Notes under the pieces: generated by a model
Seen by the model: the letters and a program-made list of their open reading frames with translations, nothing else
The model's database searches: none
What the model was told of the DNA's origin: nothing
Virus record (IMG/VR): IMGVR_UViG_3300025107_000004
Coordinates: 1-42,805 of that record
DNA: 42,805 nt
Strand: one strand, 5' to 3'
From: a virus
Shown here: positions 1,798 to 30,893 of the stretch, one piece after another
Position numbering within the stretch: position 1 is the stretch's first letter
Layout: each line of letters starts with the position of its first letter
Translations under genes and position numbers: made by a program

Positions 1798-4332
1798 ATG
1801 ATTGAAAATAAAATGTTCGCCACTTGCTTTAAAAAGGAAGTGAATGACGAAGAGAAATCAGTAGTTGCATGGGCAAATAAGTCAGACTCCATTGACAGGT
1901 CAGGCGACCTTATCGAAGACGAAGCTTGGGATTTAGAGAACTTTTTGAAAAATCCGGTTATCCCCGCGTTCCATCAATATGACAGGCCTCCTATCGGTAA
2001 AGCACTTTGGGCACGGGTAATTCCGGGACAAGGCTTAAAATTCAAGGTTAAGTTCGCTTCAACTTTGGAAGGACAAGAATTCTATGAGCTGTACCGGGAT
2101 GGGGTGCTCAATGCGTTCTCTGTGGGCTTCCGTGCGTTTGACTATCTCGAAAGGGAAGATTTTAAAGAAGCAGATATTATTAAATATAATAGGAATGGAA
2201 AATTGCCTAATCGGGTTTACAAGAAAGTGGAATTGTTTGAGGTAAGCGCAGCAGTTGTCCCTGATCACATGAATGCGCTGGTGGAACGATCTGCTTCTGG
2301 CATGATTAAGACTAAGTGTGTAATGGATTTCGCAGAAGACGCTAAATCCTCCCCAGAATATATCGAACTCCTCTCCACCCAGCCGGATTCTCTACCGGAT
2401 TTCCCAATGGAAGATAAAGCAAAAGTAATCGGATTTATTAACCTCAGTGAAAAATCACTTGATGAACCAGAAGAAGTAATCGAAGAGGTACAAGAGGTTC
2501 AGGAAACCGTAGAAAACGAAGGTGCAGTAGAAGAAAAATCAGAAACGATTGAAGAAGTTGTCGATGCTAAACCAGTAGTAGAGACTGAGACTGTCGAAGA
2601 TGCTGAACCAATTGAAAAAATAGTAAATGTGGAAGTCCTTGAAGACGCCGAAGAAAAAGGTTTAGACCTTGAAATTATTAATGAAATAGAGAAAATCGGA
2701 GAAGTAGCTGAACCAGAAACTATTGATGTCGTCGAAGAAAAAGCGACAGACGAAGTTAAAAGCATTAAAAAAGAAATCAATGATATTATCTTAGAAGTTC
2801 AAAAAGAAGAGAGTATTGAATCAGTAGCGACTGTAGAAAAGGTTACTCAAGAAGAAGTAGATAGAATAACAAATATTCTGAAATCTTGCAAGATTAAAGA
2901 TATTTCTGATGAAGATAAGAAAATTATCTCAAAACAGTATGGCGAAGAAGAATTTGATATTACTTCAGTAAGAACTGAACCTGCTGGTTTTGAACTAAAG
3001 GTCTTCTGTAAATTCCTGAATTGCAAAATCAAGAATATGTTTGTTACTGATTTCTTTATCCCTAGCGCAATGAAAGGTAATTATTTATCTGGCTTTAGAA
3101 ATTCACTAACTAAACACGAATTATTAGATCAGAGGAATTTGTATGGAAATGGTGGGGAAATTCCTCTTCGCCATTCAGTTATCCAGTTGAATTCAAAAAG
3201 ATCAGAAGAATTCTTAACTCAAGGGACACAGTTTTATAAAGCAGATTCTGGTGAAAGATTTGTATTCCAGATTGAACCAGATTGGGGTGGGTATGGGATT
3301 AATATTTATACTACCGATAAAAATATTGAACTAAATAAATCATTTGCTATGGATGCCATTCAGTGGGTAAAAGAAAACAATCTACTGAAAGGTGAAAAAT
3401 TCTCTATTATGGGAGAATTTCTTGATAAAAAAGAAATTGGTTGGGATGATGTAATTTTCCCTGATGAAGAAGCGAAGAATAAAGTCAAAGGTAGCATTGA
3501 TAGACTTACTAAGACTTCCCCCAGTAGAGGGATTATGCTTATCGGCCCCCCAGGGACAGGCAAGACGATGACTGGTAAGGTATTGATGAATCAGCCTGAT
3601 ACTACTTTTATTTGGGCATCTTCTAAAGATTTTAGATATGGGGCTGCTGGTGCATTAGCTCTTGGTTTTGAAATGGCAAGGGATCTTGCTCCTTCTGTAT
3701 TTTTTCTTGAAGATATTGATACTTGGTTGAAAGATTATACGATTGATCTTCTCAAAACTGAAATGGATGGGATTAGAGACAATAAAGGCGTTTTAACTGT
3801 CTTAACTTCAAATTTTCCTGAGCAAATGCCAGAAGCATTGATTGATCGCCCAGGTAGATTTCACCATATTATAAATTTTTCTTTACCAAATAAAGAAAAT
3901 AGAATTAAATTATTAAAGTTTTTTGTTGATTATGCCGATAAGGTAATAATAGAGAAATTTGCGGAAGAGACTGCTGGATATTCTGGTTCTCATTTAAAAG
4001 AATTAGTGGAATTTGCAAAGATGATTGCTGAAGATCTAAACATTTCTATCGACGAGGCGCTTGTTAAATCTTTAGATCAAATGAAAGCACAACGGCAATT
4101 AATTATCGATGTAAGAAGTAATAAGAAGAAAGGATTAGAAATCCAAATGCCTGAAACTAAAATGGTAGAATTTTTAACTTCAACTAAAAAAGAAACCGAA
4201 TTAAATTTTACTCCTGAACAGGTACAGGATATTTTTACTAAGAATTTAAAAGAAGTATTCAGTAAAATTAATATCAGTGAAATAGTAGAAGACAGAATTA
4301 AAATGGCTAAAGGTATTATTGAGTTTGAATAA
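1798..4332 (+). CDS. HK97-family prohead protease fused to an AAA+ ATPase
   Basis: Residues 1-175 match the HK97 prohead protease pattern: a DRSGD start segment, His59 (AFHQYD followed by PPIGKA), Ser108 in AFSVGF and an EVSAAVVP strand (E148). This protease cleaves scaffold and capsid N-termini during procapsid maturation. Residues about 215-350 are a Glu/Val-rich linker. Residues about 380-575 resemble the N-terminal region seen before the ATPase core in some cellular AAA proteins (KGEKFS, then WDDVIFP). The AAA+ core has Walker A GPPGTGKT (583-590), Walker B VFFLEDID (634-641), sensor TSN (670-672), arginine-finger region DRPGRF (683-688) and GYSGSHLKE. About 80 residues follow. The reading frame is unbroken. 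Prohead proteases are usually about 200 residues, so the ATPase is an unusual addition; it may unfold or remodel scaffold or capsid. The ribosome site is AGGAGG at 1784-1789. Confidence 0.9.
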   Translation: MIENKMFATCFKKEVNDEEKSVVAWANKSDSIDRSGDLIEDEAWDLENFLKNPVIPAFHQYDRPPIGKALWARVIPGQGLKFKVKFASTLEGQEFYELYRDGVLNAFSVGFRAFDYLEREDFKEADIIKYNRNGKLPNRVYKKVELFEVSAAVVPDHMNALVERSASGMIKTKCVMDFAEDAKSSPEYIELLSTQPDSLPDFPMEDKAKVIGFINLSEKSLDEPEEVIEEVQEVQETVENEGAVEEKSETIEEVVDAKPVVETETVEDAEPIEKIVNVEVLEDAEEKGLDLEIINEIEKIGEVAEPETIDVVEEKATDEVKSIKKEINDIILEVQKEESIESVATVEKVTQEEVDRITNILKSCKIKDISDEDKKIISKQYGEEEFDITSVRTEPAGFELKVFCKFLNCKIKNMFVTDFFIPSAMKGNYLSGFRNSLTKHELLDQRNLYGNGGEIPLRHSVIQLNSKRSEEFLTQGTQFYKADSGERFVFQIEPDWGGYGINIYTTDKNIELNKSFAMDAIQWVKENNLLKGEKFSIMGEFLDKKEIGWDDVIFPDEEAKNKVKGSIDRLTKTSPSRGIMLIGPPGTGKTMTGKVLMNQPDTTFIWASSKDFRYGAAGALALGFEMARDLAPSVFFLEDIDTWLKDYTIDLLKTEMDGIRDNKGVLTVLTSNFPEQMPEALIDRPGRFHHIINFSLPNKENRIKLLKFFVDYADKVIIEKFAEETAGYSGSHLKELVEFAKMIAEDLNISIDEALVKSLDQMKAQRQLIIDVRSNKKKGLEIQMPETKMVEFLTSTKKETELNFTPEQVQDIFTKNLKEVFSKINISEIVEDRIKMAKGIIEFE

Positions 4333-5760: not shown

Positions 5761-5829
5761 AGTGCGGATAGGGGGCACCCGATAAGTCAATATCTCCCGA
5801 TTGACTTCCGCACTGATTATCATACGGGA
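5761..5829 (+). promoter_or_regulatory. Structured RNA element copy A (three-way junction with pseudoknot)
   Basis: Starts 16 bases after the capsid stop. P1: AGTGCGGA (5761-5768) with TCCGCACT (5807-5814), 8 pairs. P2: GGG (5771-5773) with CCC (5778-5780). P3: AGTCAAT (5785-5791) with ATTGACT (5800-5806), 7 pairs. The P3 loop TCCCG (5795-5799) is complementary to CGGGA (5825-5829) beyond P1, forming a pseudoknot. Shared single-stranded parts with copies B and C: a TA step between P1 and P2, and GA(T/C)AAG after P2. The pseudoknot strand ends just before the GGGAG ribosome site of the HNH gene. Function is not known; it may control translation of that gene. Confidence 0.75.
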
Positions 5830-5850
5830 TTATAGTGGGAGTATGTATGT

Positions 5851-7379: not shown

Positions 7380-7454
7380 AGCGGGATATAGTAATGGTTA
7401 ACTTTTTAGGCTCATATCCTAAATATTCGGGTTCAAGTCCCGATCCCGCCTCCA
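7380..7454 (+). tRNA. tRNA with CAT anticodon (Met or Ile2 type)
   Basis: A full cloverleaf: acceptor 7380-7386 with 7444-7450 (GCGGGA pairs with TCCCGC, but position 1-72 is an A-C mismatch); T8; D arm with an eight-base loop holding GG; anticodon stem TTAGG/CCTAA around CTCATAT, anticodon CAT at 7413-7415; four-base variable loop; T arm TCGGG-TTCAAGT-CCCGA; discriminator T at 7451; encoded CCA 7452-7454. The anticodon stem lacks the three G-C pairs of initiator tRNAs, so it is elongator Met, or Ile if C34 is modified to lysidine. It lies inside the virion operon between two structural genes, an unusual place. Confidence 0.88.
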
Positions 7455-8219: not shown

Positions 8220-8291
8220 TTGGGGATAGGGATTCGAACCTGACAAGAAGACTTAATCCATCTTTTTCCCCAATTTTTATTAAATGGATTA
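8220..8291 (+). promoter_or_regulatory. Structured RNA element copy B (three-way junction with pseudoknot)
   Basis: Starts 24 bases after a structural gene. P1: TTGGGGA (8220-8226) with TCCCCAA (8267-8273). P2: AGG (8228-8230) with CCT (8239-8241). P3: AAGA (8248-8251) with TCTT (8261-8264), extendable by a G-T and an A-T pair. P3 loop TAATCCA (8254-8260) is complementary over 7 bases to TGGATTA (8285-8291). The order of parts equals copies A and C, while helix sequences differ with pairing kept. The pseudoknot strand is followed by GCATAGGAGG, so the ribosome site of the next gene is immediately adjacent. Confidence 0.78.
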
Positions 8292-8307
8292 GCATAGGAG
8301 GAATACT

Positions 8308-9039
8308 ATGAGAGGTGGGCAGAATAGAATTAATGTAGTAATTGGACAAGAATTTGGTAGATTAAAAATTGTCGAAGAAATTGATAAAAATAAATGGGGA
8401 AGACGGAGATTTCTTTGCGAATGTAATTGCGTTGATAAAACAAAAGTCGAGGTTCTATTGTATTCTTTAACTTCAGGACATACGAATTCTTGTGGTTGTT
8501 TTAATTTAGAAAAAATTAAAGAAAGAAATACAAAACACGGGTTCTCCCAAAGAAATAATATCGATAAGTTTTATAGTCTTTGGTTGAGTGTCAAGAGACG
8601 TTGTTATAATAAAAATCAAAAACAGTACAAAGATTATGGCGGTCGTGGTATTTATGTATGTGATGAATGGTTGAATGACCCACAAAAATTTATCGGTTGG
8701 TGTAAAGTTAATGCATATTCAGAAGGATTAGAAATTGATAGGGAAGACAATGATGGACCTTACTCCCCAGAGAATTGCAGGTTTGTTACTTGTCAAGTAA
8801 ATTCGTTAAATTCAAGGTTATTAAGAGATTCGAATTCTAGTGGATATTGTGGCGTAAGTTATCATAAAGGCAGTGATAGTTTTCAAGCAAGGATAATGTA
8901 TAACGGCAAGGTTGTATTTACTACCGCAGGTTTTAATTCTCCACGGAATGCAGCATTAGATAGAGATAAATTCATTATAAGGGAAGGATTGCTGCATAAG
9001 TTAAACTTCCCCGAACTAGCAATCAACGGGCCTCTATAA
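8308..9039 (+). CDS. AP2-domain homing-endonuclease-like protein
   Basis: 243 residues. The N-terminal part (GQEFGRLKIVEEID, then CECNC and SCGC) looks like a small zinc-ribbon, the middle has YGGRGIYVCDEW and GLEIDREDNDGPYSPENCRF, typical of phage endonuclease-like proteins of the HNH/AP2 group, and the C-terminal 60 residues (SSGYCGVSYHKGSDSFQARI onward to NFPEL) match an AP2 DNA-binding domain. The canonical HNH residues are not obvious, so nuclease activity is inferred from family. It is paralogous to the gene at 22944. AGGAGG is 7 bases before ATG 8308. It is A+T-rich and is followed with one-base overlap by a glycosyltransferase. Confidence 0.82.
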   Translation: MRGGQNRINVVIGQEFGRLKIVEEIDKNKWGRRRFLCECNCVDKTKVEVLLYSLTSGHTNSCGCFNLEKIKERNTKHGFSQRNNIDKFYSLWLSVKRRCYNKNQKQYKDYGGRGIYVCDEWLNDPQKFIGWCKVNAYSEGLEIDREDNDGPYSPENCRFVTCQVNSLNSRLLRDSNSSGYCGVSYHKGSDSFQARIMYNGKVVFTTAGFNSPRNAALDRDKFIIREGLLHKLNFPELAINGPL

Positions 9040-9665
9040 TGGGAGAATTAAACATCGCCATCGGTCTCCCCTGTAATTGGGACTTCCTCAATATCCAATT
9101 CTTCGAATCATGGATAGAATTAAAGAAACCCCAACACAGCGTAATAATCGGGAACCGAGGCAGAGTAGACGACCAACGCAATTCGATAATTCATGCAGCT
9201 CTTAAAGACGATTCATTTAGCCATGTACTGTTCCTTGACACCGATCATCGCCACCACCCTGATACTATTCCTAAATTATTGCAGCACGACAAACAGATAG
9301 TGTCGGGCTTGAGTTTTAGACGGTCAGAACCCTATGACCCGATTATGTTCAAGGAAGAAAATAACAGATTCAAAAACATAACCGAATGGGAAGAGAACGA
9401 ATTAGTTCAAATTGATGCAGTAGGCGCAGCTTCTTTATTGGTTAAGACAGAAGTATTTAAAAGAATGGATAAAAATAAGTGGTTCGAGATGAATTACCCT
9501 TATCACAATGGAGTTGTCAGTGAAGATTTTGGATTCTGCATTAAAGTGAGAAATTTAGGATACAAGATCTTTGTTGATACCAGTTGCACAAACGCTCACA
9601 TCGGGACATTGAACGTAACACAAGATACTTGGATTAAGAATGGGAGAAAAGTAAATGGACTTTGA
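9039..9665 (+). CDS. Short GT-A glycosyltransferase, paralog 1
   Basis: 208 residues. IAIGLPC start strand, a conserved D-x-x-R-N segment (VDDQRNSIIHAAL), then SHVLFLDTDHRHHPDTIPKL with the DxD metal/nucleotide-sugar motif at D67-D69, a VSGLSFRR strand, an EIDAVGAASLLV-like block (IDAVGAASLLVK) and SEDFGFCIKV near the C-terminus. These are the landmarks of a single-domain GT-A fold enzyme that transfers a sugar from a nucleotide donor. The acceptor is unknown: virion protein, phage DNA or host surface glycan. The start overlaps the stop of the AP2 gene. Paralogs lie at 22325 and 28826. Confidence 0.85.
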   Translation: MGELNIAIGLPCNWDFLNIQFFESWIELKKPQHSVIIGNRGRVDDQRNSIIHAALKDDSFSHVLFLDTDHRHHPDTIPKLLQHDKQIVSGLSFRRSEPYDPIMFKEENNRFKNITEWEENELVQIDAVGAASLLVKTEVFKRMDKNKWFEMNYPYHNGVVSEDFGFCIKVRNLGYKIFVDTSCTNAHIGTLNVTQDTWIKNGRKVNGL

Positions 9666-22283: not shown

Positions 22284-22318
22284 AAATTATTAAAGTTTTG
22301 TGTTTAGTGTCCGATAAG
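22284..22318 (+). repeat. Dispersed repeat, copy upstream of glycosyltransferase paralog 2
   Basis: AAATTATTAAAGTTTT (22284-22299) is identical to 3907-3922 inside the AAA+ coding region, and CCGATAAG (22311-22318) matches 3935-3942 at nearly the same distance (one base shorter). A third, better match is at 28752-28790. Likely a recombination footprint, though the A+T-rich half could match by chance. Confidence 0.4.
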
Positions 22319-22324
22319 TATAAA

Positions 22325-22954
22325 ATGGATATTAAAATAGCAATAGCAAGCCCCCTGACTTATTCCTCTGTTCCGATTCAATTCTTTGAATCATATTTAA
22401 GTATGGTAAAACCATACCCTCACGCATTTTTACATTCTACGGGTTATCAAGGTTTAGACGTAATAAGAAATAATTTAGTTAAAGGTGCGAAGAATTTGAA
22501 TTGCACTCATATTTTATTCCTTGATATAGATCATCGTCACCATCCTGAAACAATACCAAAATTACTATCTCATAATTTACCAGTTGTATCTGGATTATCA
22601 TATATGAGGAGGGAGGATTTTGACCCCTGCATGTTCAGAGGGATGATCAATGGTTATCATCCAGTAAAAGAATGGGAAGAAAATTCTCTGATAGAGGTCG
22701 ATAGTGTAGGTGCGGCTTGCTTATTACTGGACATGAAAGTATTTGATAATATAGAGCCTCCATATTTCGCTTTTATGGCTAACCCTGATCCGGGAATCCC
22801 GTTCGGAATCGGTGAAGACGTATTTTTGTGTAATAAATTAAAACAGGCAGGTTATAAAATATACGTAGACACGAGTTGTCCAAATAAACATTTAGCAACA
22901 ATAGAAGTAGACAAAGAATTTTCGGACAATTGGAGAATAATCATTGATAAATAA
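22325..22954 (+). CDS. Short GT-A glycosyltransferase, paralog 2
   Basis: 209 residues from ATG 22325; an in-frame TTG at 22298 would add nine residues but would not match the paralogs, which begin near the first beta strand (IKIAIASPL). Landmarks align with paralog 1: LDVIRNNLVKGA, THILFLDIDHRHHPETIPKL (DxD at D67-D69), VVSGLSYMRR, VDSVGAACLLL and GEDVFLCNKL near the end. It transfers a sugar from a nucleotide donor to an unknown acceptor. The ribosome site is weak. The next gene overlaps by 11 bases, and that gene is of the same AP2 type that precedes paralog 1. Confidence 0.85.
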   Translation: MDIKIAIASPLTYSSVPIQFFESYLSMVKPYPHAFLHSTGYQGLDVIRNNLVKGAKNLNCTHILFLDIDHRHHPETIPKLLSHNLPVVSGLSYMRREDFDPCMFRGMINGYHPVKEWEENSLIEVDSVGAACLLLDMKVFDNIEPPYFAFMANPDPGIPFGIGEDVFLCNKLKQAGYKIYVDTSCPNKHLATIEVDKEFSDNWRIIIDK

Positions 22955-23669
22955 AAAACATCCATCTGAGTACGTGGGCGAAAAATTCGGCGAATTAACC
23001 ATTATTGAAGTATTAAACCCATATGTTCAACAAAATGGGAGGAAAAGGACCAAGGTTATGGCTCGATGCGAATGTGATGGTAATGTAGACGCATACCGTC
23101 TTGAGGCATTGCAATTTGGAAGCACAACATCTTGTGGTTGTGTTCAAAAGGAGAATACGTCAAAAACAAAAACTACTCATGGTCTAACGAAACATCCATT
23201 ACATCGGGTATGGCTTGGAATTAAGAAAAGATGCGATAATGAGAATGACCTTAGATATAAAGATTGGGGAGGAAGAGGGATTACAATTTGTGATGAATGG
23301 AAAAACAAATTTAAAACATTTTATGACTGGTGCGTAAATAATGGTTGGAACGGGAAATTACAAATCGATAGGATAAATAATGATGGTAATTATGAGCCGA
23401 ATAATTGTAGGTTTTTGACAGCACAAGAAAACAATGGTAATAAAAGATTAATAATGAGTTCTAATACATCTGGATACCGGGGAGTTAGTTTTATTAAAAG
23501 CAAAGGATGTTTTAGGGTAAAGATTAGCCATAAGAATGAAACTGTTTATTTGAAGTATGGCTTCTCCACCGCGAAAGGTGCAGCAATAGCACGAGATATT
23601 TATTGTATAAAAAATAATATTCCTTTCACCCTTAATTTCCCAGAATTGATTTATTGGATGGCTTTATAA
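22944..23669 (+). CDS. AP2-domain homing-endonuclease-like protein, second copy
   Basis: 241 residues from TTG 22944 (GGAG at 22932-22935). Paralogous to the gene at 8308: EKFGELTIIEVLN start, ARCECDG and SCGC cysteines, LHRVWLGIKKRCDNENDLRY, WGGRGITICDEW, QIDRINNDGNYEPNNCRFLT and a C-terminal AP2 domain (TSGYRGVSFIKSKGCFRVKI to LNFPEL). Presumably DNA-binding and possibly a nicking or homing enzyme, though canonical HNH residues are not clear. Unlike the other endonuclease-type genes here it has no structured RNA element in front; it follows a glycosyltransferase instead of preceding one. Confidence 0.82.
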   Translation: MINKKHPSEYVGEKFGELTIIEVLNPYVQQNGRKRTKVMARCECDGNVDAYRLEALQFGSTTSCGCVQKENTSKTKTTHGLTKHPLHRVWLGIKKRCDNENDLRYKDWGGRGITICDEWKNKFKTFYDWCVNNGWNGKLQIDRINNDGNYEPNNCRFLTAQENNGNKRLIMSSNTSGYRGVSFIKSKGCFRVKISHKNETVYLKYGFSTAKGAAIARDIYCIKNNIPFTLNFPELIYWMAL

Positions 23670-28751: not shown

Positions 28752-28790
28752 ATTAAAGTTTTTTAATAGTTATGCCGATAAGGTAATAAT
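28752..28790 (+). repeat. Copy of part of the AAA+ coding region upstream of a glycosyltransferase
   Basis: Ungapped match of 35 of 39 bases to 3912-3950, including a 20-base identity (28771-28790) beginning TATGCCGATAAGG. In the reading frame of the AAA+ gene it would read LKFFNSYADKVIMK against LKFFVDYADKVIIEK, but a TAA lies just upstream, so it is a relic or a recombination footprint and not coding. Confidence 0.65.
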
Positions 28791-28825: not shown

Positions 28826-29521
28826 ATGGATAACAAAGAAATACGGTTAGGCATCGCGCTTCCGTTATGTGACACGAAGGTTCATTCAGGTTTTTTGGAT
28901 ACATTTATTTTACTAAAGAAACCCGATTTTGTTTATTTGCGTCCACAATTTCCTAGCATGGAAATTGATATAATTAGAAATCAGCTAGTCAAACAAGCAC
29001 TAGAAGCAGGCTGTACCCATCTTTTGATGATGGACACTGACCAAACATATAGTGACCGAGATATGATTTTTAAAATGCTCGCTCATAAGAAGGATGTAGT
29101 TTCAGCAATTGTACACCGCAGATATCCTCCGTTTGATTGCATCACTCTGAGGGGTGAGCCGGGGAAGTATACCCAGGTATCAGATGAAGAGATATTGGTC
29201 GCAAGAGATAGTGATAATCACTTAGTGGAAATTGATGCAACTGGTTGTGGTTGTTTATTATATGATACGGAAGTATTCAAAAAAATTAAACCGCCCTGGT
29301 ATGAGTTCTCTAAGACGGAAAGTGGTGATGTAGTAGGTGAAGATATTGGATTTTGTCATAAGTTAAAAGAAGCAGGATATAATATTTATTGTGATGTGTC
29401 GATTGATATTGGACATTTGGCGCAACTTGAAATAAATTGGGGCACTTATGCGTTATATAAACATTTGAAGAAAATACAGGCGGCGGAAGCTGAAAAAGAA
29501 GAAACAATTAAGGAGGAATAA
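28826..29521 (+). CDS. Short GT-A glycosyltransferase, paralog 3
   Basis: 231 residues. Shares landmarks with the genes at 9039 and 22325: RLGIALPLCD, IDIIRNQLVKQALEAG, THLLMMDTDQTYSDRDM (DxD at D70-D72), VVSAIVHRRYPP, EIDATGCGCLLYDTEVF and GEDIGFCHKLKEAGYNIYCD. It lacks the DHRHHP extension seen in the other two and has a charged C-terminal tail (AAEAEKEETIKEE). GGGAGG lies 6 bases before ATG 28826. Its end contains the AGGAGG of the tail tube gene, 3 bases away, so it is expressed together with a major virion protein. Confidence 0.85.
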   Translation: MDNKEIRLGIALPLCDTKVHSGFLDTFILLKKPDFVYLRPQFPSMEIDIIRNQLVKQALEAGCTHLLMMDTDQTYSDRDMIFKMLAHKKDVVSAIVHRRYPPFDCITLRGEPGKYTQVSDEEILVARDSDNHLVEIDATGCGCLLYDTEVFKKIKPPWYEFSKTESGDVVGEDIGFCHKLKEAGYNIYCDVSIDIGHLAQLEINWGTYALYKHLKKIQAAEAEKEETIKEE

Positions 29522-29954: not shown

Positions 29955-30023
29955 ATAAGGGATAGGACGGCCATCCGACAAGCGAGAATCATTCACTCGT
30001 TTCCCTTATTAATAAATGAATGA
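29955..30023 (+). promoter_or_regulatory. Structured RNA element copy C (three-way junction with pseudoknot)
   Basis: Starts 14 bases after the tail tube stop. P1: ATAAGGGA (29955-29962) with TCCCTTAT (30002-30009), 8 pairs. P2: GGA (29965-29967) with TCC (29974-29976). P3: CGAG (29983-29986) with CTCG (29996-29999), extendable by G-T and A-T. Loop TCATTCA (29989-29995) is complementary over 7 bases to TGAATGA (30017-30023). Then CATAGGAG follows, the ribosome site of the endonuclease gene. The same architecture as copies A and B, with GACAAG after P2. Confidence 0.78.
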
Positions 30024-30038
30024 CATAGGAGAATGACT

Positions 30039-30893
30039 ATGGAAGAAAATAAAGAAGTTAAATATTGTGCCTGTAATTGTGGAGAGGTAGTTACAAGAAA
30101 ACGAACTAAATTCATATACGGGCATTCTAAAAATTTATCAGCGCAAGAACCTCCGAAGTGCCTCTGTGTTTGCGGTCTTCCAACAAGATTTGACCAATGG
30201 AGTAATTCTTGGAATGAATTTGTGAATAATCATTATTTAATGCCGGAAGAGATAAAGACTAAAATAACAGTTGGTAAAATTAAAGGAAATTTAGAAAGAA
30301 GAAATAAAATGGTGGAGGAGTTGCCAGAGCCTCCCGATTGTGCTTGCGGTTGTAAAGAAAAAGTAACCTTGAAAACAAGAGGCTACCCTGAATGGAATGA
30401 ATTTGTTCTTGGGCATTCAACGAAAAATAAAGAGATTCCAGAGGAGACAAAGAAAAAGTTATCCGATATCGGCAAGACTAGAACTGGGGAACAGACTAAT
30501 TTTTATGGTAAACATCATATTCCAGAATCAAAGAAAAAATTATCAGAATTAGCAAAATTAAGAGTAGGCCCAAAGTCTGGCGGCTGGAAAGGTGGTATCC
30601 ACCCGATTTATAAAAGAATAAGAACCTGTGAAAGATATACAATCTGGAGATTGGGGACATTTGAACGAGATCATTTTACTTGTCAACACTGTGAAGATAA
30701 GAAAGGTGGTAATCTCCACGCCCATCATAAAAAGTTATTCAACTCTATTATTAAAGAACATAATATTTTCACAATTGAACAGGCCGTAGCTTGCAAAGAG
30801 TTATGGGATTTGAATAATGGAATTGCTCTTTGCAGAAAATGTCACATAAAAGAGCATAAAAGGCTTAATAAATTAACCCAATTAGCCGCTTAA
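30039..30893 (+). CDS. HNH endonuclease with NUMOD3-type motif
   Basis: 284 residues from ATG 30039; the ATG at 30033 is in frame but too close to the TAGGAGA ribosome site. N-terminal region has three CxCxCG-like cysteine clusters (CACNCGE, CLCVCGL, CACGCKE). A NUMOD3-like DNA-binding helix region is visible (TNFYGKHHIPESKKKLSELA). The C-terminal HNH part shows FERDHFTCQHCED, LHAHHKKLF, N-G-I-A-L-C-R-K-C and a final H. Likely a free-standing homing endonuclease inserted between tail tube and chaperone genes. It is unrelated in layout to the HNH gene at 5851. Confidence 0.85.
   Translation: MEENKEVKYCACNCGEVVTRKRTKFIYGHSKNLSAQEPPKCLCVCGLPTRFDQWSNSWNEFVNNHYLMPEEIKTKITVGKIKGNLERRNKMVEELPEPPDCACGCKEKVTLKTRGYPEWNEFVLGHSTKNKEIPEETKKKLSDIGKTRTGEQTNFYGKHHIPESKKKLSELAKLRVGPKSGGWKGGIHPIYKRIRTCERYTIWRLGTFERDHFTCQHCEDKKGGNLHAHHKKLFNSIIKEHNIFTIEQAVACKELWDLNNGIALCRKCHIKEHKRLNKLTQLAA

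What the first reader, a model, noticed from the sequence alone, without database searches (positions are those of the whole stretch)
5761..5829. A structured RNA found three times, each between a virion gene and an endonuclease gene (copy A)
Seen: 5761-5829, 8220-8291 and 29955-30023 fold into the same plan: closing helix P1 (7-8 pairs), TA step, short P2, GA(T/C)AAG, hairpin P3, P1', and a P3 loop complementary to a strand 10-12 bases beyond P1, right before the ribosome site. Helix and pseudoknot sequences differ while pairing is kept, the hallmark of selected RNA structure. Each starts 14-24 bases after the stop of a virion-type gene (capsid, small structural, tail tube) and precedes an endonuclease-type gene of a different family (zinc-finger HNH, AP2, NUMOD3-HNH). 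Known: some T4 homing endonuclease genes are silenced by RNA hairpins over their ribosome sites. Inference: a shared RNA device limiting endonuclease translation on late transcripts, or a ribozyme, riboswitch or exonuclease-blocking fold. I cannot match it to a named RNA family.
Basis: partly seen in the sequence, partly recalled or inferred. Interest (0 to 1): 0.87.

Follow-up and report, generated by a model that had tools for sequence, protein, structure and literature searches.

The report
Two-way RNA switch before phage endonucleases
A small folded RNA sits just ahead of DNA-cutting and other genes in many phages and integrated elements, and one of its loops can pair either with a nearby decoy strand or with the ribosome-binding site of the gene behind it, which suggests a widespread on/off switch for protein synthesis in a known RNA family whose function was not known.

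Summary
The three RNAs are real and share one fold. A covariance model of their family finds exactly these three in the window (54-66 bits; all three were in its training set). Copy C alone passes Rfam's cut-off for int-alpA RNA (RF02996), which Rfam files as an sRNA; A and B do not. The fold is a three-way junction (P1; UA; P2; GAYAA; P3; U) whose P3 loop (L3) pairs with a strand S1 placed 5-12 nt beyond P1. New here: L3 is also complementary to a second strand, S2, in the ribosome-binding region, usually in the loop of a further hairpin, P4. Against loops swapped between copies the pairings stand at z=26 and z=21 (153 copies), and at z=12.6 and 8.8 in 39 copies chosen without the search pattern. 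S1 and S2 compete for the same loop bases. Over 100 phage contigs and 34 of 596 sampled bacterial genomes carry it. In phages it mostly lies after virion genes and before HNH, GIY-YIG or NUMOD endonucleases, but also before other genes; in bacteria, often after integrases. Best reading: a cis-acting, bistable translational switch; trigger unknown. The endonuclease-only reading is too narrow.

The parts
5761..5814 (+). Copy A, three-way junction: P1 5761-5768/5807-5814, J12 UA 5769-5770, P2 about 5771-5773/5778-5780, J23 GAUAA 5781-5785, P3 5786-5791/5800-5805, J31 U 5806
   Evidence: fold z -4.25; pairs covary in the family
5792..5799 (+). Copy A, P3 loop L3 (AUCUCCCG)
5825..5829 (+). Copy A, S1 (CGGGA), pseudoknot partner of L3
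5831..5845 (+). Copy A, P4 hairpin with S2/SD GGGAG (5837-5841) in its loop; S2 is the second partner of L3
5851..6795 (+). HNH endonuclease gene behind copy A
   Evidence: Pfam HNH
8220..8273 (+). Copy B, three-way junction: P1 8220-8226/8267-8273, UA 8227-8228, P2 8229-8230/8239-8240, P3 8247-8251/8261-8265, J31 U 8266
   Evidence: alone it does not fold better than shuffles
8252..8260 (+). Copy B, L3 (CUUAAUCCA)
8285..8291 (+). Copy B, S1 (UGGAUUA)
8293..8310 (+). Copy B, P4 (CAUAG/CUAUG) with SD AGGAGG 8296-8301 in its loop; S2 weak here (3 nt)
8308..9039 (+). HNH/AP2-like endonuclease gene behind copy B
   Evidence: no Pfam match at E 0.001
29955..30009 (+). Copy C, three-way junction: P1 29955-29962/30002-30009, UA 29963-29964, P2 29965-29967/29974-29976, J23 GACAA 29977-29981, P3 29982-29986/29996-30000, J31 U 30001
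   Evidence: Rfam RF02996 match 37.5 bits, cut-off 35.8
29987..29995 (+). Copy C, L3 (AAUCAUUCA)
30017..30023 (+). Copy C, S1 (UGAAUGA)
30024..30041 (+). Copy C, P4 (CAUAG/CUAUG), loop GAGAAUGA with SD 30027-30031 and S2 GAAUGA 30031-30036
30039..30893 (+). NUMOD3 endonuclease gene behind copy C (likely start 30039)
   Evidence: Pfam NUMOD3; start inferred from SD spacing

Best explanation
Each RNA is a cis-acting translational switch of the gene behind it. A three-way junction displays the loop L3. L3 can pair with S1, just beyond P1 (a pseudoknot), or with S2, which covers or abuts the Shine-Dalgarno sequence in the P4 hairpin loop; both cannot form at once, since they use the same loop bases. 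Shown by sequence statistics: the junction helices, S1, S2, P4 and their place ahead of the start codon. Inferred: L3-S2 shuts the ribosome site (OFF), L3-S1 keeps L3 away from it (ON), and the offset of S1 (3' part of L3) from S2 (5' part) lets one strand displace the other. What tips the balance (ligand, protein, the ribosome leaving the upstream gene, or folding order during transcription) is unknown. In this phage it would hold down, or time, endonuclease synthesis from strongly transcribed virion-gene messages.
For: P1/P2/P3 covary; outer P1 pairs 78/66/55% against 41/38/38% shuffled, all six pair types. L3-S1 4.89 vs 3.08+-0.07 bp and L3-S2 4.81 vs 3.39+-0.07 bp against swapped loops, n=153. 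39 copies taken by the covariance model, outside the search pattern and the training set: S1 5.18 vs 3.40+-0.14, S2 4.97 vs 3.74+-0.14. Of 65 copies with both pairings at least 5 bp, 64 share 3 or more loop bases; S1 lies 3' of S2 on the loop in 38 against 6, and 19 against 8 in the other set. S1 starts 5-12 nt after P1', S2 ends 2-11 nt before the start codon. P4 stems 4.91 vs 3.77+-0.07. Within one GIY-YIG gene family the loop changes (GTCC, CTCT, CATTC, CACTC, CATCC) and S2 changes with it. T4 homing endonucleases are known to be held down by RNA over the ribosome site (PMC2988022).
Against: There are no expression, probing or ligand data. Copy B has only 3 nt of S2, and about 40% of copies have S2 under 5 bp. 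S1 and S2 duplexes have similar computed strength (-7.0 and -7.7 kcal/mol), so which state prevails cannot be told. Swapped-loop controls do not remove shared ancestry. The genes behind the RNA give no hint of a ligand.
Confidence: 0.6

Rival explanations
1. Ligand-binding riboswitch: the conserved junction (UA/GAYAA/U) is an aptamer, and the ligand fixes L3-S1 or L3-S2.
For: The junction letters hardly vary while helices and loop vary freely, also in copies found without the pattern, where mainly GAYAA to GAAAA and the A-U to C-G closing pair change; a choice between two strands is a usual expression platform.
Against: Gene context is not metabolic (endonucleases, integrase neighbours, tail genes); the core may be needed for the fold alone. 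It is a special case of the best explanation, not opposed to it.
Confidence: 0.3
2. Plain repressor or insulator: the RNA simply lowers translation, or stops ribosomes of the virion gene from re-initiating at the next gene; S1 is only a structural pseudoknot.
For: The upstream stop codon lies within 30 nt of P1 in 53 of 92 copies with an upstream gene; T4 precedents for negative control.
Against: Does not explain why S1 and S2 both match the same loop and change together; many copies lie far from an upstream stop codon.
Confidence: 0.2
3. Exonuclease-blocking RNA: a three-way junction closed by a loop-to-downstream pseudoknot protects the downstream message.
For: Same order of helices as flavivirus xrRNA (own knowledge): P1, P2, P3, then L3 paired with a strand 3' of P1.
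Against: No role for S2 or P4; found in Pseudomonadota, many of whose members lack a 5'-3' exonuclease such as RNase J (own knowledge).
Confidence: 0.05
4. DNA-level element (recombination or homing site, hairpin of a mobile element) rather than an RNA.
For: It sits next to endonucleases and integrases.
Against: G-U pairs in P1 and P3; fixed place and strand relative to the ribosome site and start codon; kept without the endonuclease in L007.
Confidence: 0.03

Closest known systems
int-alpA RNA (Rfam RF02996)
   Same: Same core (UAG-P2-CGAnAAG-P3) and plan; copy C and many relatives score over its cut-off; bacterial copies lie after integrase genes, as the family name suggests.
   Different: The Rfam model marks neither the L3-S1 and L3-S2 pairings nor P4, types the RNA as an sRNA, and misses copies A and B and most phage loci examined (5 of 17 loci reach the cut-off).
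RBS-sequestering structures of T4-type homing endonucleases (I-TevI, segB, Aeh1 mobE; PMC2988022)
   Same: RNA structure over the ribosome site of a phage homing endonuclease embedded in other genes' transcripts.
   Different: Those are described as separate hairpins, relieved by a late promoter; this is one homologous fold with two alternative partners, in front of many gene families.
ColIb-P9 repZ pseudoknot (own knowledge)
   Same: A loop pairing with a strand next to the Shine-Dalgarno sequence, linked to translation of the gene before it.
   Different: Different fold, plasmid-specific, controlled by an antisense RNA; no three-way junction or second copy of the strand.
Flavivirus xrRNA (own knowledge)
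   Same: Three-way junction with L3 pairing 3' of P1.
   Different: Different conserved bases, no link to a ribosome site.

Membership tests
int-alpA RNA (RF02996) | Covariance-model score at or above the gathering score: copy C | tested here: met
   37.5 against 35.8 bits
int-alpA RNA (RF02996) | Covariance-model score at or above the gathering score: copies A and B | tested here: not met
   No match even at E 10. They are linked to C only through the broader model R1, many of whose other matches score over the Rfam cut-off.
int-alpA RNA (RF02996) | Place between an integrase and an alpA gene (a name, not part of the score) | tested here: not met
   Window copies lie between phage genes and endonucleases; integrase context is seen in bacterial relatives.
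T4-type RBS-sequestering structure | RNA pairing directly with the Shine-Dalgarno sequence | tested here: inconclusive
   The SD lies in the P4 loop, not its stem; L3 can pair with it in most copies.
T4-type RBS-sequestering structure | Relief by a late promoter inside the structure | not testable with these tools
   No transcript data.
Riboswitch | Direct ligand binding that changes expression | not testable with these tools
   Needs binding and expression assays.
Known ribozyme or other Rfam RNA | Match to another Rfam family | tested here: not met
   Only int-alpA reaches a cut-off at these places.
Exonuclease-resistant RNA | Blocks a 5'-3' exonuclease | not testable with these tools
   The topology alone agrees.

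The most novel reading that the evidence does not exclude
A widespread class of bistable translational switch working by strand exchange: one junction-presented loop alternates between a decoy strand and the ribosome site, and phages and integrative elements use it to time endonucleases and other genes in response to a common, unidentified signal.
Probability: 0.4. Interest if true: 0.88.

Novelty: new variant of a known kind. Interest (0 to 1): 0.75.

Why it matters
It gives a concrete, testable function to an Rfam family typed as an sRNA, shows that the family is far wider than its model, and links it to the open question of how free-standing homing endonucleases are kept in check (a review of T4 says their translational control is not obvious; PMC2988022). 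The dual-partner loop would be a compact natural strand-exchange switch, and a cultured phage carries it (Salmonella phage Seszw_1, two copies).

Tried and rejected
Rfam scans of A and B alone gave only chance matches (SNORA29, a plastid 3'UTR). Endonucleases A and C as queries in viral contigs brought few relatives, so a pattern of the RNA core was used instead. Four phage-collection searches gave no useful match. The Seszw clones without the HNH gene are labelled mutants, so they are not natural empty sites. A terminator role was rejected: no steady U-run after P1'. A fourth weak model match at 23649 (8.9 bits, E 0.52) was judged chance. Bypassing, trans-splicing and guide-RNA readings were considered and dropped: nothing in the data needs them. 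The Weinberg 2017 paper that I recall as describing int-alpA is not held, so what it says on pseudoknots could not be checked.

Full report
Check of the observation. The window is an IMG/VR virus record. Copy A and copy C fold as described and better than shuffles (z -4.25 and -2.38); copy B alone does not (z -0.51). Rfam finds int-alpA RNA, RF02996, at copy C (37.5 bits, cut-off 35.8), and nothing at A or B.

The family. Nearly all of them show P1, P2 and P3, although the pattern fixes only three short blocks; 91 of the 94 contigs L009-L102 match model R1, which was trained on part of them. After removing near-duplicates, 168 viral and bacterial copies show P1 pairs outside the pattern paired in 78, 66 and 55% (fourth to sixth pair) against about 40% in shuffles, with all six pair types. 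On an 85-row alignment (A3) 80.3% of cells pair against 62.8+-0.7% when 3' letters are shuffled, and sliding the partners by one column drops it to 60% or less. A model from it (R1) finds exactly A, B and C in the window (all three were among its training rows). The family core is: P1 closed by A-U or C-G, UA, P2, GAYAA or GAAAA, P3 opening with G-Y, a single U, P1'. Concerted change of the closing pair from A-U to C-G is seen in copies found without the pattern.

A second partner for the loop. L3 matches S1, which starts 5-12 nt after P1', and also S2, which ends 2-11 nt before the start codon and mostly includes SD letters. Against loops swapped among copies: S1 4.89 vs 3.08+-0.07 bp (z 26), S2 4.81 vs 3.39+-0.07 (z 21), n=153. 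The swap keeps the pyrimidine-rich make-up of loops and the purine-rich make-up of ribosome sites, so it is not merely an anti-SD effect; S2 cases without SD letters exist, copy C among them. I then took copies that the model found but that neither the pattern nor the training set contained, most from bacterial genomes: S1 5.18 vs 3.40+-0.14, S2 4.97 vs 3.74+-0.14, n=39. This set is not wholly independent, since it includes a few copies already used under another locus name (window copy B among them). Of 65 copies with both pairings of 5 bp or more, 64 overlap by 3 or more loop bases, so the two exclude each other; where they are offset, S1 takes the 3' side of L3 and S2 the 5' side (38 against 6; 19 against 8). 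S2 usually lies in the loop of a hairpin P4 directly behind S1 (stem 4.91 vs 3.77+-0.07). In homologous GIY-YIG genes the loop and S2 change together. All three window copies have P4 with the SD in its loop; S2 is 5 nt in A, 6 nt in C and only 3 nt in B.

Context. Behind 86 viral copies Pfam finds HNH_3 (13), GIY-YIG (10), AP2 (6), NUMOD3 (5), NUMOD4 (5), HNH (4) and others. By N-terminal sequence and these matches I judge roughly half or more to be endonucleases; this is an estimate. Others are a tail assembly chaperone, a tail tube protein, a glycosyltransferase, a replication protein and unknowns. The genes before are often structural: tail sheath, major and minor head proteins, portal, tail. 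In bacterial genomes phage integrases often precede the RNA (eight of nine upstream genes scanned; these were picked, not sampled). In sampled genomes the RNA is found in 11 of 249 (phylum of an Ancylobacter), 1 of 199 (phylum of a Streptococcus) and 22 of 148 (phylum of a Syntrophobacteraceae MAG) (two of the positives are the genomes on which the samples were centred).

With and without the endonuclease. L007 lacks endonuclease B; an RNA with the CUAG/GAAAAG core, S1 and ribosome site stands directly before the next gene, the one that follows the endonuclease in the window. L256 lacks endonuclease C, S1 and the ribosome site, but keeps the junction, with P1 slightly decayed. L254 keeps RNA A with compensated P2 before a diverged HNH gene. 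So the RNA is not simply part of the endonuclease cassette, and it can serve other genes. Salmonella phage Seszw_1 carries two copies, one before an HNH gene and a divergent one between the portal gene and another endonuclease; the divergent one, found only by the model, has both S1 (UCUACG) and S2 (CUACG).

Mechanism. Shown: the fold, the two exclusive pairings, P4, and the place at the ribosome site. Inferred: translation is low when L3 holds S2 and possible when L3 holds S1; the offset lets one displace the other. The trigger is unknown. Known precedents are T4 endonucleases silenced by RNA over the ribosome site (PMC2988022). I find no paper in the held library on the function of int-alpA RNA, but the library is incomplete.

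Verdict. A real and widespread RNA, related to Rfam int-alpA, with a second pairing that was unreported as far as I could check and that makes it look like a translational switch.

Noticed in passing
window 3913-3950 and 28753-28790: A 38-bp promoter-like element, TTAAAGTTTTTT-N5-TTATGCCGATAAGGTAATAAT, occurs exactly twice, same strand, none expected by chance, and is kept in relatives. It lies ahead of the capsid unit (RNA copies A and B) and of the unit with copy C: perhaps late promoters.
   Followed up: partly
window 1798-4332: One 844-aa frame joins a prohead protease (Peptidase_S78) and an AAA ATPase.
   Followed up: no
window 7380-7454: A tRNA-Met (cat) gene between small structural-type genes, also in L007.
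   Followed up: no
window 22944-23669: A fourth, AP2-type endonuclease-like gene without the RNA; its start overlaps the gene before, as if translationally coupled.
   Followed up: no
window 9039-9665, 22298-22954, 28826-29521: Three similar Anp1-like glycosyltransferase-type genes spread through the late region, with radical-SAM-like and methyltransferase-like genes nearby.
   Followed up: no
G003 (L265, L272, L274, L277-L279) and G011 (the record of L003): Six copies of the RNA in one Syntrophobacteraceae genome and four in one 74.7-kb virus record.
   Followed up: no
L023 11459-11522: A further int-alpA match of 44.5 bits that model R1 did not list: the family is wider than R1.
   Followed up: no
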